Of a DNA stretch of 64,000 bases, positions 2 to 12,504 are shown piece by piece. Location: positions 1 to 64,000 of the IMG/VR virus record IMGVR_UViG_3300042558_004400; one strand, written 5' to 3'. This DNA comes from a virus. The translations under genes were made by a program, and so were the position numbers. Below the pieces are notes generated by a model. The model saw nothing but the letters and a program-made list of their open reading frames with translations. It ran no database searches and was not told the DNA's origin. Numbering within the stretch: position 1 is the first letter of the stretch; the number at the start of each line of letters is the position of its first letter.

Positions 2-772
2 TCTACAGCGCAGGCTACAACGCAGGCACAGACTCTACCGCAGGCCTTTACTCCTCTTGGTATTCGTAACGGAGATTCTCGACTTCAAGAGTATCCAGAC
101 CCTAAGGACGATGAACCTTATCTTGTTATTGGTGAAGTAGATTCTGCTGGATCTGAATGCCCATCATGTCAAGCTGAAGTTCTTGCTTATGTCCCTAAGA
201 GTTTTTATTGCGACACTTGCGATTTATGCTTTGCCCTTATGTCAGACTCTTATGGTGAGATAATTGACAACGCTAAAAAGTATTTAACTGACAGAAAATT
301 TGATTCTAATATAACTTATTATCTTTGGACTAAAGATGCTCAAGATCAAGATTTGCTTATGCGAATTAAAGAAGTAGATTATAACGATGATGATAGCTCA
401 TTGCATACATCATTGCTGACTACTAATTCTGGTCCAACTTTAGAAGTTCTTGATGGTTACTTCTATGAAGGATTTGACGAAACAAGAACAGTTTGTTGTG
501 ATGTTCATTTGTACACAGTTGAAAAATGCACTTGTGAAAAAACTGTCTATTACGATGATGTAATTGAATTCGATCAAAGTCATCCATACAATGTGTATGA
601 TAATAAAGCTGCTTGTGTTGATTGCGAATTTTATTATTCTCGCAACTGCAAACCTTATTTAAATTCAATTGTTAATTTTGCAAAAAACAAACAAAAGATT
701 GAAACCCCTATTGGTGAATGTAAAGATTTTACTCTTTATGAACTCAGCAATACTATGTCTAGTTACGATTAA
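2..772 (+). CDS. Cys-rich protein, 5' end outside window
   Basis: The reading frame is open from base 2, so the ATG at 239 is probably internal and the true start lies before the window. The visible part has about 256 residues. A CPSC...CDTC pair near visible residues 57-76 looks like a zinc ribbon. Further cysteines follow (CC at about 165, CTC at about 175, and CVDC towards the C terminus). The middle is acidic and polar. The gene sits 10 bases upstream of the E1-like gene and is probably cotranscribed with it, so it may belong to the same cassette. I see no JAB (H-x-H) or E2 signature, and I do not recognise the family. Confidence 0.75.
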   Translation, partial: STAQATTQAQTLPQAFTPLGIRNGDSRLQEYPDPKDDEPYLVIGEVDSAGSECPSCQAEVLAYVPKSFYCDTCDLCFALMSDSYGEIIDNAKKYLTDRKFDSNITYYLWTKDAQDQDLLMRIKEVDYNDDDSSLHTSLLTTNSGPTLEVLDGYFYEGFDETRTVCCDVHLYTVEKCTCEKTVYYDDVIEFDQSHPYNVYDNKAACVDCEFYYSRNCKPYLNSIVNFAKNKQKIETPIGECKDFTLYELSNTMSSYD

Positions 773-782
773 GGAATAATTT

Positions 783-1532
783 ATGGAACCTAAAAGAGTA
801 GTTTTAGTTGGTGCCGGTGGCATTGGCACCTGGTTAGCAGAAGGAGTTGTTAGACTTCTTGAATGGAAATATCCTGGATCTGCTTTGATAATCGTTGATG
901 GTGACAGCTATGAGCAAAGAAACTTAGAGCGTCAATCATTCACTCAAGTCGGCAACAAAGCTTCAGTTAAAGCTCTTGAGCTGACTAAGCAATTTAATCA
1001 GACTCTTGTTATACCTATTCCTAAATGGGTTGTTTCTGATGAACATCCTGAAACAGATGAAGAGTCTAGCAAGATTAGAGCAACTAAGTTGCTCGCTGAA
1101 GGCGATATCGTTCTTGCTGTTGTTGATAACTTTTCTGCTCGTAAAATTTTATTTGACGCAGCTTCAAAACTTAACAACGTAGATGTTTTTACTGGTGGAA
1201 ACGATGATAACCTTTTTGGTAGCATCTATCATTATCGTCGTCGTGATGGCGTAGACGTTACTGCTCATCCAGTAGAAACACACCCAGAATACCAAAATCC
1301 ACCTGATCGCAATCCAGGTGAAATGTCTTGTCAAGAACGAGCCGAAGTAGAAGGTGGCACCCAAATACTTGCCACCAATATGGCTGTTGCTGCAATGATT
1401 CTTGGTCGTATTCAATATACTATTGTTTCCGAACAAAATCCAGAACAGTCAGAGATCTACTTTGATCTAGGTCTTGGCATGTCCCAACCATATAATCGTA
1501 TGGTCAATCAACAGCAACCCGCTTACCTATAA
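783..1532 (+). CDS. ThiF/E1-like adenylyltransferase (PRTRC-ThiF type)
   Basis: This 249-residue protein has the E1/ThiF Rossmann fold. The nucleotide loop GAGGIG is at residues 10-15, the acidic strand end VDGD at 38-41, NLERQ at 47-51 and VVDN at 113-116. Family members adenylate the C-terminal glycine of a ubiquitin-like protein. Cys183 in EMSCQERAE is the best candidate for the thioester cysteine, because PRTRC ThiF proteins carry a cysteine in a similar late position followed by an Ala-rich helix. The start has AAGGA 9 bases upstream. The ubiquitin-like gene follows 21 bases later, which supports an E1 role over thiamin or molybdopterin synthesis; no such pathway genes are nearby. Confidence 0.85.
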   Translation: MEPKRVVLVGAGGIGTWLAEGVVRLLEWKYPGSALIIVDGDSYEQRNLERQSFTQVGNKASVKALELTKQFNQTLVIPIPKWVVSDEHPETDEESSKIRATKLLAEGDIVLAVVDNFSARKILFDAASKLNNVDVFTGGNDDNLFGSIYHYRRRDGVDVTAHPVETHPEYQNPPDRNPGEMSCQERAEVEGGTQILATNMAVAAMILGRIQYTIVSEQNPEQSEIYFDLGLGMSQPYNRMVNQQQPAYL

Positions 1533-1553
1533 TTAATAAACGGAGATAATAAC

Positions 1554-1805
1554 ATGGAAATGAATTCCAACCAAACAAACACCAGCACAGGCGAAGGCGT
1601 AGCCAACGTTCGTTACGGTGTATACAACCAACCAGCACCAGTCTCAGGAAAGACTGTTGGACAGGTCCGTGAGCAGTTCAGCAAGCTCTGGGGCATTAGC
1701 TCAGATGCTATTGCTTACAAGGGCAAAGACAAGCTTGACGAGAACTATGTCATTCAGTCAAACGACAACGTTGAGTTCCATCGCCGTGCAGGCGAAAAGG
1801 GCTAA
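1554..1805 (+). CDS. Ubiquitin-like beta-grasp protein (PRTRC protein C-like)
   Basis: The 83-residue protein has a polar N-terminal tail of about 18 residues. A compact domain follows with alternating beta and helix pattern (VRYGVYN, then TVGQVREQFSKLWG, then IQSNDNVEFHRR) and ends in RRAGEKG. PRTRC protein C family members, as I recall them, end in a very similar FRRAxGTKG, and a C-terminal glycine is what an E1 activates. The gene follows the E1-like gene and is preceded by a strong CGGAGAT ribosome site. Codons are much richer in C than in the neighbours, and a 13-bp terminator follows, which suggests high separate expression. Conjugation itself is inferred. Confidence 0.75.
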   Translation: MEMNSNQTNTSTGEGVANVRYGVYNQPAPVSGKTVGQVREQFSKLWGISSDAIAYKGKDKLDENYVIQSNDNVEFHRRAGEKG

Positions 1806-1824
1806 CACCTTTCCTAACATGATC

Positions 1825-1896
1825 GTGGGGGGGACTATTAAACTACTTGATAGTTTATTAGACTCTTAACAGAGTAGTCCCCCCCACTATTTTTTA
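1825..1896 (+). terminator. Rho-independent terminator after the ubiquitin-like gene
   Basis: A perfect 13-bp inverted repeat pairs 1825-1837 (seven Gs then ACTA) with 1875-1887. Its loop contains a second small AAACT/AGTTT hairpin, and a T-rich tract follows at 1890-1895. It would insulate the ubiquitin-like gene from the ATPase downstream. Confidence 0.85.
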
Positions 1897-1935
1897 TAAA
1901 GCCATTAGATTATTATTTTGATACCTGGAGTACAT

Positions 1936-3534
1936 ATGCTCTTTCAGCAAATCCAATTGGGAATTCCCGCTATTTGGATTAAAACAACCGACCCTTACAG
2001 ACTCGAAGAAAATATTACATCCTTTGATAAGCGTACATACTTTACAATTTCAAAAGATGGATTTTCTCAAAACATAAACTTCCAATGGAAACCAGTTCTT
2101 GTTTCTATACCTGCTCCTGAAGACGGTGCTCCACCAATAATCAAGACAACTACTGATTTGTCATTGTCTTTTGACTACATGCTTAATTCTTCTGCTGTTA
2201 AAGATCTTCCTAAATCTTTTATTTACAATTTAATTGGAGATCCTAAAGCATTTGCTAATGAATTTTCAGGCTTAGTCTCTTCCCTGCATTCTGATTACAG
2301 AAAATCTTTTAAATCTGATGACATTTCTTTAATGCCACTTCAGCTCATAGTCTTGAGCGCTTCTGATGTTCCAGAAGAAATTGCGCATTTATTTTATGTT
2401 CATGAAGATATGTACCCCACTCTTCAAGAGCTAAACGAAATTCTCAACCACATACATACTTCTACTAATGGCGAAGTATTAGATGCTGCTAAAGCCAAAG
2501 AAATTTCCAATGCTGGACTTGGTCTTACAGAATCTAAATTTATCAATCTCTGTCTTATGTCAGTACTTGAACATGGAACAATTAGTTCTTCTTACATCTA
2601 TGAAGCTAAAATGGCTAATGTTAAGAAAAACGGAATCCTTGAAATAATAAAACCTAAGATTACTTTTGATCAAATTGGTGGCCTTGATAATATTAAAGAT
2701 GTTATTATGCGCAATCTTTACTTCTGGAATAATCCTGAAGAAGCTGAGAAGTTTGGCATTCAGCCTATTCGTCGCATGCTAACTGTTGGCATTCCCGGCA
2801 CTGGTAAGTCTGCTATATGTGAGGCAACTGCTAGTGCTCTTGGTCTTGACCTTGCCCGAACTGGTGTAAGTCAAGTCATGAATTCTTTTATCGGTCAATC
2901 AGAACAAAACATGCGTACAGTCTTTCAGCAAATTAAAGTCATGGCTCCGCTTTGCGTATGGATTGACGAGTTTGGTCGAGATATGTCTGGTGGTCAAAGC
3001 TCGTCTCAAGTAGACGGTGGCACTACCGATCGTGTTCATGGTGAATTTCTTACTGGACTTCAAGAACTTCCTAACGATGTTTTCTTAATGTGTGCTGCTA
3101 ACCAGCTAAACCATCTTAAACCAGAAATGCTTCGTGCAGAACGCTTCGATAAGATCTTCTTTGTTGGCTTGCCATCATTTGAAGAACGAATTGAAATTAT
3201 TAAGATCTATCTTCCTGAAGACACTTATGATTACTCTGCTATAGCTCAAGCAACCAAGTACTTTACTGGTGCAGAAATTAAATCATTAGTTAAAGAAACA
3301 AAATTCAATGTTGTTTCTGCTGAACACCGCATGCTCAATACTGCTGATGTAGTAAAAGCTGCTCCATTTATGCGTAATATTCTTTGGAATAAAGAACGCG
3401 AAATGATTAGAGACTTATATCGTTATGCTTATGACAACTGGGACTGGGCTTCTAGCTTCCAGTATAATGACATAGATGATATACTTGGTAAACAAAAATC
3501 TTCTCAAGCCCCTTCTTGGGACTTGAAAGTCTAA
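1936..3534 (+). CDS. AAA+ ATPase, Ycf46/CDC48-like
   Basis: I chose the ATG at 1936, with GGAG 8 bases upstream, over the TTG at 1918. The product is 532 residues. The N-terminal 200 residues resemble the non-catalytic part of Ycf46-type proteins, beginning with a hydrophobic strand and a DPYRLEE segment. The AAA module has Walker A GIPGTGKS (about 285-292), Walker B CVWIDEFGRD (about 340-349), sensor 1 CAAN (about 386) and RAERFDKIFF near 400, where the arginine finger lies. Such ATPases remodel or unfold proteins. Its place between the ubiquitin-like and E2-like genes makes it the natural unfoldase of the cassette; this role is inferred. Confidence 0.85.
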   Translation: MLFQQIQLGIPAIWIKTTDPYRLEENITSFDKRTYFTISKDGFSQNINFQWKPVLVSIPAPEDGAPPIIKTTTDLSLSFDYMLNSSAVKDLPKSFIYNLIGDPKAFANEFSGLVSSLHSDYRKSFKSDDISLMPLQLIVLSASDVPEEIAHLFYVHEDMYPTLQELNEILNHIHTSTNGEVLDAAKAKEISNAGLGLTESKFINLCLMSVLEHGTISSSYIYEAKMANVKKNGILEIIKPKITFDQIGGLDNIKDVIMRNLYFWNNPEEAEKFGIQPIRRMLTVGIPGTGKSAICEATASALGLDLARTGVSQVMNSFIGQSEQNMRTVFQQIKVMAPLCVWIDEFGRDMSGGQSSSQVDGGTTDRVHGEFLTGLQELPNDVFLMCAANQLNHLKPEMLRAERFDKIFFVGLPSFEERIEIIKIYLPEDTYDYSAIAQATKYFTGAEIKSLVKETKFNVVSAEHRMLNTADVVKAAPFMRNILWNKEREMIRDLYRYAYDNWDWASSFQYNDIDDILGKQKSSQAPSWDLKV

Positions 3535-3556: not shown

Positions 3557-4174
3557 ATGTCAATTGAAGAAAATGTAGAAGAGTTCTTAGAATCACTAGA
3601 TTCTGATAACCAAGATGATAAACCAAAATACACTAATACACTTTATAAGAAATGGTTTAAATCTAAATCCCAAAGTGGTTTTATTTCCATTCGACCTTGG
3701 TTTCAGGGTATGAAATTTTCCATTGACATTGGTAAGACCAATGCTTCTGGAAAGCTTGAAAGTAATACTAACTGTTTTGTTGATGCTATTGACTTTGCAG
3801 CTTACCTTAAAGCTATAACCAATGGAACTGCTGCTCTTAACTTTCCTGCTAATGAAAGACTTGGCCTTGCTACACCTGAAGCATATGTTTCTTATGGTGG
3901 AACTATGACTGCTGCTGGTCAATCAATCAGTAGAATCTTTAAATGTCAGTATTGGCAGTCTGGAGACAACGTAGATACTAATGCGTTCATCTGGAAAGCT
4001 GGTCATTTTAAAGCTCGCAAGTCTGACAGTGGTGCATTTATTCCTGATATGAAATCACCTCTGTCTGTTGACTCTATTAAAGTAAGTCGTCAAGATATCG
4101 TAAGCATTTCTTATTTGCTTGATCTTTCTTTAGCTTCCCATGTCACTAACAACACAGAATGGTACGACGCATAA
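3557..4174 (+). CDS. Hypothetical protein in ubiquitin-like cassette
   Basis: The product has 205 residues and I do not recognise it. The first 30 residues are acidic with a predicted helix. The rest looks like a folded beta-rich domain (SGFISIRPWFQGMKFSIDIG, then a Gly/Ala-rich centre and IVSISYLLDLSLASHV). There is no signal peptide or membrane span. AAAAGG lies 8 bases upstream of the ATG. The stop overlaps the next start (TAATG), so it is translated with its neighbour, which points to a shared function. Confidence 0.75.
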   Translation: MSIEENVEEFLESLDSDNQDDKPKYTNTLYKKWFKSKSQSGFISIRPWFQGMKFSIDIGKTNASGKLESNTNCFVDAIDFAAYLKAITNGTAALNFPANERLGLATPEAYVSYGGTMTAAGQSISRIFKCQYWQSGDNVDTNAFIWKAGHFKARKSDSGAFIPDMKSPLSVDSIKVSRQDIVSISYLLDLSLASHVTNNTEWYDA

Positions 4175-4563
4175 TGTCAGATGATTCATTATTCGAAGGC
4201 ATAAGCGATATAGACCTTCTCAGAGAACAAACTCAGCAACTTATTATATCTATGTCTAATAAAATAGACGAAAGATTTAAAGAGTTTGATGAGTCTATTG
4301 AGAATCTAGAGAAGCAGATTGCTACTTTAATTCTTGGTTTTGGCGAGCAAGCAGTAAACATGGAAGGCCTTATAGCCCAAATTAAATTTGCTACTCCTGA
4401 ATCCCAAAAAATATTTATGGACACTATAGCTCACAGCAGAAAACAAATGCTTGAAGCCATGAAAGAAGGAGCCGGTGGTCTATTGGCTGCAGAAAGTCCA
4501 GGAGTTGCCTCAGCCATTGAGAGCCTGGCTGACGAAAAGTTATTTGACGGAACCGATCAATAA
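4174..4563 (+). CDS. Coiled-coil hypothetical protein
   Basis: I use the ATG at 4174, which overlaps the upstream TAA, over the in-frame ATG at 4159. The 129-residue product is almost wholly helical. A heptad-rich segment at about 5-50 (LREQTQQLIISMSNKIDERF) is followed by a second amphipathic region and a Gly/Ala-rich tail ending FDGTDQ. It may be an oligomerising partner of the adjacent ATPase. No family is recognised. Confidence 0.65.
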   Translation: MSDDSLFEGISDIDLLREQTQQLIISMSNKIDERFKEFDESIENLEKQIATLILGFGEQAVNMEGLIAQIKFATPESQKIFMDTIAHSRKQMLEAMKEGAGGLLAAESPGVASAIESLADEKLFDGTDQ

Positions 4564-10973: not shown

Positions 10974-11045
10974 GCCTCTGTAGTTAAATGGATATAACAT
11001 GGGACTTCTAATCCCCCGTTCTAGGTTCGATTCCTAGTGGAGGCG
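10974..11045 (+). tRNA. tRNA-Arg (UCU)
   Basis: A full cloverleaf can be folded: acceptor GCCTCTG with TGGAGGC, D stem GTTA/TAAC, anticodon loop CTTCTAA with TCT at 11007-11009, and T arm CTAGG TTCGATT CCTAG. CCA is not encoded. The anticodon stem has one mismatch at its outer pair. The tRNA reads AGA, a codon heavily used in this AT-rich genome. Confidence 0.9.
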
Positions 11046-11118
11046 CAAAGGGTAGCTATTGCTCAGGTCCATCGAAATACTAGAATAATAGCTGCTCTTT
11101 ATAATCGAAAGTAAAAAT

Positions 11119-11364
11119 ATGGAAACATTTAAATTACACAACTTTAAAGAGAGTAGCGTTTTACATGCTGCCTCTTGGAATAATGAGACAAGAGATCTTA
11201 TTATCATTTTTCGTTCAAGAGCAGTTTGGCTTTATCGCCAAGTTCCTGAAACTATCTACGAAAATTTTATTGCAGCTACCTCTTCAGGTCAGTTCTTTAA
11301 TGTTAACATAAGAGACACTTATCTTTCTCAGTGCTTGTACAAACAAGGGGAAACAGTTGTCTAA
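11119..11364 (+). CDS. KTSC-domain protein
   Basis: The 81-residue product matches the KTSC pattern: ESSVLHAASWN, a strand with IIIFRSRAVWLYRQVPE and the SGQFFNVNIRDTY ending. KTSC domains are found alone or fused to nucleic-acid enzymes and are thought to bind nucleic acid; the exact role is unknown. An AT-rich gap of 73 bases separates it from the tRNA. Confidence 0.75.
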   Translation: METFKLHNFKESSVLHAASWNNETRDLIIIFRSRAVWLYRQVPETIYENFIAATSSGQFFNVNIRDTYLSQCLYKQGETVV

Positions 11365-11568: not shown

Positions 11569-12180
11569 ATGACTACAATAATTGGAGTTCAAGGTGATGG
11601 TTTCAGTATTATTTGTACAGATTCCAGAATATCTTCTATGGACGATGGTGGTTTCGCCTCTCAAATAACAACTTTAGGAAAAAACTCTTCTAAGGTAGCA
11701 GTTAATGGTAGATACCTTTTAGGTGCTGCTGGAGATGTTAGAGCTATAAATATCCTGCATCACGTCTTTCAGCCACCTGTACCACCACCAGGCACAACAG
11801 ATTCTAAGTTGGACCAGTTCTTTACTAGTAAGTTTATACCATCTTTAAGAGCTACATTTGAAGTTCAAGGTTATGCTGCTCCTGAAAGAGATGAGTCAAG
11901 CCACATAGCTGAGCAGGGCTCTACTGTCATCTGTTCCATTAATGGCTCCATCTATGTTGTGGATGGAGACTACTCTTGGACATCTGACGTCAGTGGCCTC
12001 TACGCGCTCGGTACAGGCGCTTCCTACGCTCTAGGTGCTATGTCTATCCTCTTTCCTAAAAAGGGCATTCCTAACATCGCTCAGGCTAAAACTTTCTGCC
12101 TTAAAGCTATTGCGGTTTCTGCAAAATTTGACCCCTATACTGGTCCCCCTTACTATTGTTATGTACAGGAAGAGTCATAG
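11569..12180 (+). CDS. Proteasome beta/HslV-like Ntn hydrolase
   Basis: The 203-residue protein begins MTTIIGV. Removing Met, as expected before Thr, exposes Thr1-Thr2 without any propeptide, as in HslV. Counting from Thr1, CTDSR places Asp17 and Arg19 exactly as in proteasome beta subunits. The lysine of NSSKVAV (about position 41) fits Lys33 if an eight-residue insertion is allowed. GAAGD and GTGASYALGAM in the second half fit the conserved glycine-rich strands. It would form a threonine peptidase, possibly a ring. Codons are richer in C in its second half than in the neighbours. The partner ATPase at 1936 is a candidate, by inference. Confidence 0.75.
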   Translation: MTTIIGVQGDGFSIICTDSRISSMDDGGFASQITTLGKNSSKVAVNGRYLLGAAGDVRAINILHHVFQPPVPPPGTTDSKLDQFFTSKFIPSLRATFEVQGYAAPERDESSHIAEQGSTVICSINGSIYVVDGDYSWTSDVSGLYALGTGASYALGAMSILFPKKGIPNIAQAKTFCLKAIAVSAKFDPYTGPPYYCYVQEES

Positions 12181-12192
12181 AACGGAATAATA

Positions 12193-12504
12193 ATGGATTT
12201 TGATAAACTTACATGCAGCTCTTGCAGCATTGAATGGAACCGTCAGAAAACTAGAGGAAGAAAACCAAAGGTTTGTCCAGATTGTACCATTAAACCAATA
12301 GACGAAGTAGAAGAAGAAGATCCTACGGAAGACATTCCTTTGTCTCCGGAACCTCGTCGTGCAAAAACTAAGTATCCACCTAATACAAAATGGTTATGCC
12401 ATTCTTGTCAAGCCACCGTTAAAATCGGTATTGGTATTAACGAGGAGCCAACACACAAATGTCAGAAAAGACTTAAAAAAGTCTTTCCTTTAGAAAGAGT
12501 TTAA
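12193..12504 (+). CDS. Double zinc-ribbon protein
   Basis: 103 residues with two cysteine sets: CSSC with CPDC in the first 30 residues, and CHSC with a later HKC in the last 35. A basic GRKPK precedes the second pair of the first set, and an acidic linker joins the two halves. It likely binds zinc, and perhaps nucleic acid or protein. It is 12 bases downstream of the proteasome-like gene and probably cotranscribed. Confidence 0.65.
   Translation: MDFDKLTCSSCSIEWNRQKTRGRKPKVCPDCTIKPIDEVEEEDPTEDIPLSPEPRRAKTKYPPNTKWLCHSCQATVKIGIGINEEPTHKCQKRLKKVFPLERV

What the first reader, a model, noticed from the sequence alone, without database searches (positions are those of the whole stretch)
11569..12180. 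Proteasome-beta-like threonine peptidase in the same phage
The mature N terminus would be Thr-Thr with Asp17 and Arg19 in exact register. With the AAA+ ATPase and a ubiquitin-like tag nearby, the phage may carry a full tag-unfold-degrade route, independent of host Pup-proteasome. It might also be a decoy subunit.
Basis: partly seen in the sequence, partly recalled or inferred. Interest (0 to 1): 0.85.

Follow-up and report, generated by a model that had tools for sequence, protein, structure and literature searches.

The report
Phage proteasome-like threonine peptidase, accessory cargo
This freshwater phage carries an intact gene for a proteasome-like protein-cutting enzyme of a kind already reported in phages; it comes and goes independently of the ubiquitin-like and ATPase genes nearby, so it is unlikely to be the shredder of a dedicated phage tag-and-destroy system.

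Summary
Window 11569-12180 (+) encodes a 203-aa proteasome-fold Ntn hydrolase. In 169 distinct homologs Thr1 is T in 168 and S in 1, and Asp17 and Lys33 are invariant. The AlphaFold2 model (pLDDT 91) matches BPH, proteasome beta and HslV over the whole chain, with Thr2 on their Thr1. dN/dS is about 0.04. An active peptidase is far more likely than a decoy.

The interpretation, one phage tag-unfold-degrade route, is not supported. An E1-like enzyme, a ubiquitin-like protein and an AAA+ ATPase do lie 8-11 kb away, but the modules separate both ways. Eight related E1-Ubl-AAA contigs lack the peptidase; in the four where I read the slot, another small ORF fills it between conserved neighbours. At least 21 other records carry the peptidase without any E1, including eight named phage genome records.

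A head-maturation role was also tested (the gene adjoins the portal gene in two other lineages); close relatives lacking it keep that module, so this is rejected as a general role.

Best reading: an accessory phage gene for a BPH/HslV-like self-compartmentalising threonine peptidase, probably working without that ATPase. Ring form, activity and substrate are unproven. Phage proteasome homologs are published (Fuchs 2021): a new member of a known kind.

The parts
11569..12180 (+). CDS of the proteasome-like (BPH/HslV-type) threonine peptidase, 203 aa
11559..11563 (+). ribosome-binding site GAGGA, 5 bases before the ATG
   Evidence: read directly
11572..11574 (+). codon of Thr2 = catalytic Thr1 after removal of Met1 (no propeptide)
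   Evidence: 168 T and 1 S of 169 homologs; aligned on chain residue 1 of BPH
11620..11622 (+). codon of Asp18 = Asp17
   Evidence: 169/169
11692..11694 (+). codon of Lys42 = Lys33
   Evidence: 169/169; placed on Lys33 by profile alignment with HslV
11866..11922 (+). inner pore loop (residues 100-118 QGYAAPERDESSHIAEQGS), long and acidic as in BPH
   Evidence: BPH comparison from PMC5777263
12010..12018 (+). codons of G148-T149-G150 = the G-S-G motif around Ser129 (Thr here)
   Evidence: GxG 169/169; middle residue S 105, T 62, C 2
12130..12141 (+). codons D188-P-Y-T191 = Asp166 and Ser169 positions
   Evidence: position 188 D 128, N 35; position 191 T 162 of 169
11119..11364 (+). left neighbour of the cargo slot (81 aa, unknown), kept in relatives without the peptidase
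12193..12504 (+). right neighbour of the cargo slot (103 aa, Cys-rich zinc-finger-like), kept in relatives without the peptidase
783..1532 (+). E1-like (ThiF/PRTRC_ThiF-like) enzyme, part of a SEPARATE module, not of the peptidase system
1554..1805 (+). ubiquitin-like protein with invariant C-terminal GEKG, part of the separate module
1918..3534 (+). AAA+ ATPase, part of the separate module (TTG start uncertain; homologs match from about residue 2-7)

Best explanation
The gene is an accessory (cargo) phage gene encoding a self-compartmentalising threonine peptidase of the BPH/HslV side of the proteasome family. Host methionine aminopeptidase would remove Met1 and expose Thr1; Thr1, Lys33 and Asp17 form the catalytic set and Gly47 (G52) the oxyanion hole. 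As in BPH, identical subunits probably form a double ring with the active sites inside and a long acidic pore loop at the entrance, and the S1 pocket is hydrophobic. It probably cleaves unfolded proteins or peptides in the infected cell without a phage partner ATPase, giving a host-dependent benefit such as clearing or reusing host protein or removing a host factor. SHOWN: sequence family, predicted fold, conserved catalytic residues, purifying selection, and separability from E1-Ubl-AAA. INFERRED: ring assembly, activity, ATP independence, substrate, benefit.
For: Family and fold. Catalytic conservation in 169 distinct homologs. Selection. Pore loop 19 aa, mean net charge about -2.8 in this family, aligned on the acidic BPH loop: with PMC5777263. 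Residue 50 (S1 position 45) is L/I/V in 167/169. Independence. Presence/absence in precise slots in two phage lineages, and absence from relatives of a third. No long H3/H4 insertion (helices 151-161 and 170-187) and no C-terminal extension, so compatible with a double ring by the criteria of PMC8665760.
Against: No activity or assembly data exist. BPH itself showed no activity on the model substrates tested although inhibitors bind it, so catalytic residues do not guarantee a general protease; connectase shows that the fold can be a ligase. In the window's own lineage the gene is kept beside E1-Ubl-AAA in 30 of 38 contigs where it could be seen, so coupling there is not excluded.
Confidence: 0.68

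Rival explanations
1. One reading: the Ubl is attached by the E1, the AAA+ unfolds the tagged protein and feeds it into the peptidase ring, all phage-encoded.
For: All parts lie within 11.4 kb on one strand; the AAA+ has a conserved aromatic-hydrophobic-Gly pore loop and its best curated models include proteasome-activating nucleotidases; the E1 has an invariant Cys and the Ubl an invariant Gly tail; all 7 further AAA+ records tested also had the peptidase.
Against: Eight E1-Ubl-AAA contigs without the peptidase, four with the slot read; at least 21 peptidase records without E1; Hum25 has no PF00004 match; no HbYX tail, and AAA+ tails do not differ in an obvious way between peptidase-plus and -minus phages; SSB, UDG and other unrelated genes share the same block, so co-occurrence is lineage synteny.
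Confidence: 0.12
2. Head (prohead) maturation protease or scaffold-degrading protease: in two other lineages the gene sits between terminase and portal or directly after the portal.
For: Group B: terminase - phosphoesterase - peptidase - 94 aa - portal - 266 aa (possible scaffold) - major capsid; group C: terminase - portal - peptidase.
Against: Group B relatives with portals at least 82% identical: 10 of 59 lack the peptidase; the six printed carry a 98-aa ORF in the same slot. Streptomyces phages GiJojo and Abafar keep the head genes with no protease annotated there. In G002, 97% identical to the window phage, the peptidase lies about 80 kb from the major capsid gene.
Confidence: 0.06
3. It works with a HOST ATPase (Mpa/ARC, ClpX/ClpC or HslU) or mixes into host proteasome rings.
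For: Many relatives are in phages of Actinomycetota (Microbacterium, Arthrobacter; WhiB in group C; Streptomyces-phage head genes in B and C), many of which have Pup-proteasomes (own knowledge).
Against: Homologs also occur in phages of Vibrio, Psychrobacter, Tenacibaculum and Moorella, outside the Pup-proteasome world; no alpha subunit or second homolog was seen in these phages except the double contig G005. The host of the window phage was not established.
Confidence: 0.08
4. A decoy or inactive subunit, or a non-peptidase Ntn enzyme (ligase-like, as connectase).
For: The fold allows other chemistry; no activity data.
Against: Thr1 168/169 plus 1 Ser, Asp17 and Lys33 169/169, G47 mostly kept; a decoy would be free to lose them. 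No S3/S4 two-helix insertion of the connectase type in the model.
Confidence: 0.06

Closest known systems
PHROG 1040 'peptidase HslV family' / UniProt A0A6J7XBU4 'HslV' of an uncultured Caudovirales phage
   Same: Same phage family: HMM E=1.3e-18; BFVD model TM 0.90, 36% identity
   Different: The name is inherited from HslV; no HslU partner has been shown. Several named-phage homologs are shorter (174-198 aa).
BPH (Thiobacillus denitrificans 5ovs/5ovt)
   Same: Best solved structure: VIA Z 19.5, rmsd 2.7 over 175 aa (tied with some proteasome beta chains); long acidic pore loop; no known unfoldase
   Different: About 20% identity; cellular; the 14-mer is shown for BPH only
HslV (ClpQ)
   Same: Profile E=6.5e-17, same Thr1/Asp17/Lys33, compact subunit
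   Different: Far below the NCBIfam equivalog cut-offs (13-16 versus 137-158 bits); long pore loop instead of a short linker
PPH and AAH, proteasome homologs reported in phages (Fuchs, Alva and Lupas 2021, PMC8665760)
   Same: Phage-borne group I proteasome-like homologs, no AAA+ partner found
   Different: PPH is about 140 aa and lacks helix H2; this protein has H1 and H2. AAH sequences were not at hand, so the subfamily is open. The paper found no Actinobacteria-specific phages with AAH, whereas homologs of this protein occur in Microbacterium and Arthrobacter phages.

Membership tests
Proteasome-like superfamily (PF00227; Thr/Ser1, Asp17, Lys33, Ntn fold) | N-terminal nucleophile directly after Met or propeptide | tested here: met
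   MTTI start; Thr1 168/169, Ser 1/169; aligned to chain Thr1
Proteasome-like superfamily (PF00227; Thr/Ser1, Asp17, Lys33, Ntn fold) | Asp17 and Lys33 | tested here: met
   169/169 each, register from profile alignment
Proteasome-like superfamily (PF00227; Thr/Ser1, Asp17, Lys33, Ntn fold) | proteasome-type Ntn fold | tested here: met
   model pLDDT 91.3; all 1000 chains compared at Z 8 or more
Proteasome-like superfamily (PF00227; Thr/Ser1, Asp17, Lys33, Ntn fold) | Pfam gathering score for the single sequence | tested here: not met
   16.6 bits against 22.4; a divergent member, shown by profiles and fold instead
HslV (TIGR03692 equivalog) | equivalog score cut-off | tested here: not met
   13.1 against 157.75 bits
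HslV (TIGR03692 equivalog) | partner HslU (AAA+) | tested here: inconclusive
   AAA+ genes exist in many records, but the nearby one hits PAN/CDC48/FtsH-like models, no HslU model was listed, and Hum25 has no PF00004 match
BPH | long acidic pore loop between H2 and S7 | tested here: met
   19 aa, mean net about -2.8
BPH | tetradecameric double ring | not testable with these tools
   no multimer prediction was available
PPH (Fuchs 2021) | about 140 residues, helix H2 missing | tested here: not met
   203 aa with helices 57-65 and 78-99
AAH (Fuchs 2021) | sequence clustering with AAH | not tested
   AAH sequences not in the collections at hand
Phage tag-unfold-degrade (ubiquitin-proteasome-like) system | peptidase and E1/Ubl/AAA+ co-occur | tested here: not met
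   separable both ways
Phage tag-unfold-degrade (ubiquitin-proteasome-like) system | HbYX docking tail on the AAA+ | tested here: not met
   HslU-type docking would not need it
Prohead maturation protease | kept whenever the head module is kept | tested here: not met

The most novel reading that the evidence does not exclude
In the window's lineage only, a formerly independent phage threonine peptidase has been recruited by the neighbouring E1-Ubl-AAA module, giving a complete phage-encoded tag-unfold-degrade machine that some sister phages have lost again.
Probability: 0.1. Interest if true: 0.88.

Novelty: new member of a known kind. Interest (0 to 1): 0.36.

Why it matters
Proteasome homologs in phages have been catalogued, but no function is known for them. 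This family is abundant in public phage contigs (577 relatives among the 600 pattern matches read, with more beyond the limit), is catalytically intact, and is gained and lost in defined slots. That gives natural present/absent pairs and points to an accessory function that does not depend on a phage AAA+ module.

Tried and rejected
(1) Tag-unfold-degrade module: tested in both directions and rejected as an obligate system. (2) My own lead that it is a prohead protease, from its place beside the portal in groups B and C: rejected as general, since close relatives with the same head module lack it. (3) Decoy: rejected on catalytic conservation. (4) Exchange between lineages A and B: the peptidase tree mixes them (about 5 changes, bootstrap 3-6) but well-supported branches force only one, so undecided. 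(5) Recoded stop codons in the 39-kb phages, suspected because L201 seemed to lack ORFs downstream: wrong, a 1711-aa ORF ran past the fetched end. (6) genome contigs gave one hit only, in a MAG labelled Gammaproteobacteria, possibly a viral contig. (7) Promoter and repeat scans around the gene gave nothing decisive. (8) No paper on phage proteasome homologs beyond Fuchs 2021 was found in the held library. (9) Host of the window phage: not established. (10) Peptidase S78 (PF04586) not found in the window record, but the record is a 102.8-kb piece. (11) No Anbu chain was among the rows shown in the structure comparisons; this does not exclude kinship.

Full report
OBSERVATION. The ORF at 11569-12180 (+) encodes a 203-aa protein beginning MTTIIGVQGDGFSIICTDSRIS. 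With Met1 removed, Thr1, Asp17, Ser18 and Arg19 are in proteasome register. The single sequence scores below the Pfam Proteasome cut-off (16.6 against 22.4 bits) but hits PHROG 1040 'peptidase HslV family' at 1.3e-18 over its whole length. A profile of phage homologs finds solved HslV at 6.5e-17, BPH at 2.4e-12 and proteasome beta at 5.5e-8; a profile weighted to closer homologs puts BPH first (6.6e-11, aligned over residues 2-196). The alignments place K42 on Lys33.

CONSERVATION. Scans of IMG/VR and the phage collection gave 268 loci with 169 distinct proteins. Position 1 is Thr in 168 and Ser in 1; Asp17, Lys33 and GxG(128-130) are invariant; the Ser129 position is S or T in all but two; the Asp166 position is D or N in all but six. 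Against its closest homolog dN/dS is 0.037 at dS 0.52. It is neither decaying nor likely to be a decoy.

STRUCTURE. AlphaFold2 with 51 sequences gives pLDDT 91.3, pTM 0.87 and an Ntn fold with H1, H2, H3 and H4. Foldseek against the PDB: T. denitrificans BPH first (3e-12), then HslV and proteasome beta. VIA-align: BPH 5ovt Z 19.5, rmsd 2.7, 175 aligned; rows within 1 are tied, so BPH, archaeal and yeast beta are not separated. BFVD: phage 'HslV' A0A6J7XBU4, TM 0.90. The pore loop (residues 100-118) is 19 aa with mean net charge about -2.8 in the close family and aligns with the acidic BPH loop. In HslV this is a short linker; BPH has no known unfoldase (PMC5777263). The S1 position is L/I/V in 167/169. 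There is no long H3/H4 insertion that would block a double ring by the criteria of PMC8665760. Ring formation itself was not tested.

At 783-1532 lies a ThiF/E1-like protein (Pfam 6e-13; best curated family PRTRC_ThiF 1e-10), at 1918-3534 an AAA+ ATPase (PF00004 1e-22; PAN, CDC48 and FtsH models). The 83-aa protein at 1554-1805 has a predicted ubiquitin-like beta-grasp fold (pLDDT 78; ubiquitin and TtuB at Z 8-9, close to the range where a match may mean only a common arrangement). Its tail FHR[RK][AS]GEKG is invariant; three sequences end in two further residues. The E1 has an invariant Cys in PGE[ML]SCQ. The AAA+ has an aromatic-hydrophobic-Gly pore loop but no HbYX tail.

DO THEY BELONG TOGETHER? 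In the window's lineage they do co-occur: all 7 further AAA+ records tested have the peptidase. But SSB, UDG and unknown genes of the same block co-occur just as well, so this is lineage synteny. Scanning 44 E1 records with the peptidase profile: 30 have it. Of the 14 without it, six do not count: G044 and G045 are short pieces, G050 ends near the E1, and G064-G066 have only partial or distant E1 matches. The other eight, G046, G047, G048, G054, G055, G060, G061 and G063 (59-194 kb), carry E1, Ubl and AAA+ without it. These records are not independent (some are near-copies) and none is certified complete. In G046, G048 and G054 the slot between the homologs of 11119-11364 and 12193-12504 holds an unrelated 121-127 aa ORF; G060 has 107- and 73-aa ORFs there. 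Conversely 21 of the peptidase records searched with PF00899 show no E1: nine contigs of 75-107 kb, four of 35-39 kb, and eight named phage genome records. A 22nd, G019, is cut off just upstream of the place and does not count. Hum25 has no PF00004 match. So neither module needs the other.

A SECOND IDEA, TESTED. In group B (contigs near 97 kb) and group C (39-kb ct2KA10-like) the gene sits in the head module: terminase - phosphoesterase - peptidase - 94 aa - portal - 266 aa - major capsid in B, terminase - portal - peptidase in C. This is the usual place of a prohead protease. Among group B portals at least 82% identical, 49 loci have the peptidase and 10 with enough upstream sequence do not; the six printed show a 98-aa ORF in the slot. 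Streptomyces phage GiJojo (capsid 58.6%) has annotated terminase, portal, scaffold and capsid genes but none annotated as a protease between them, and Abafar (portal 44.6%) has only small hypothetical genes after the portal. In G002, 97% identical to the window phage, peptidase (71.5-72.1 kb) and capsid gene (152 kb) are far apart. The idea is rejected as a general role.

MECHANISM. Most likely: a cargo gene for a homo-oligomeric, BPH-like threonine peptidase, Thr1 freed by methionine aminopeptidase, active sites inside, entry controlled by the acidic pore loop, working without the neighbouring AAA+. What it cleaves is unknown. BPH showed no activity with model substrates although proteasome inhibitors bind its Thr1, so a narrow substrate range is plausible. 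Ring, activity, ATP independence and benefit are inferences.

NOVELTY. Fuchs, Alva and Lupas 2021 (PMC8665760) described PPH and AAH in phages, found no AAA+ partner and no telling gene context. This protein is a further group-I-like member; it fails the PPH definition (size, H2), and AAH membership could not be tested. Additions here: catalytic conservation in 169 homologs, occurrence in Microbacterium and Arthrobacter phages and in a WhiB-bearing phage group, and presence/absence in fixed slots. Interest 0.36: a sound, somewhat surprising phage gene, of a known kind.

Noticed in passing
window 783-3534; L314-L355: A conserved phage operon E1-like / ubiquitin-like (invariant ...GEKG tail) / AAA+ / two unknown proteins (3557-4174, 4159-4563) in about 40 large phage contigs, independent of the peptidase. 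No JAB or E2 was identified by the scans made. It deserves its own study.
   Followed up: partly
L345, L338, L343 (Ubl genes): Three ubiquitin-like proteins carry two extra residues (SL or NI) after the invariant GEKG, as if they needed trimming before activation.
   Followed up: no
G005 (267,766 bases): about 19-33 kb and 235-252 kb: Two different copies each of E1, AAA+ and peptidase on one contig; may be a chimera of two phages.
   Followed up: no
window 239-772: In the near-identical contig G001 the gene upstream of E1 is about 550 aa, whereas the window shows only a 177-aa ORF; probably an end effect of the contig.
   Followed up: no
L310:9997-11529 (G002 149997-151532): 511-aa protein with KPIILNHDLNSEPIGRV next to the capsid gene; no Pfam or PHROG match, possibly the real prohead protease of this lineage.
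   Followed up: partly
L359, L360, L362 and L396-L414 slots: Unrelated small ORFs (121-127 aa in one lineage, 98 aa in another) replace the peptidase in the same slots; they could be functional alternatives.
   Followed up: no
window 10974-11046: tRNA-Arg (TCT) 0.5 kb upstream of the peptidase gene.
   Followed up: no
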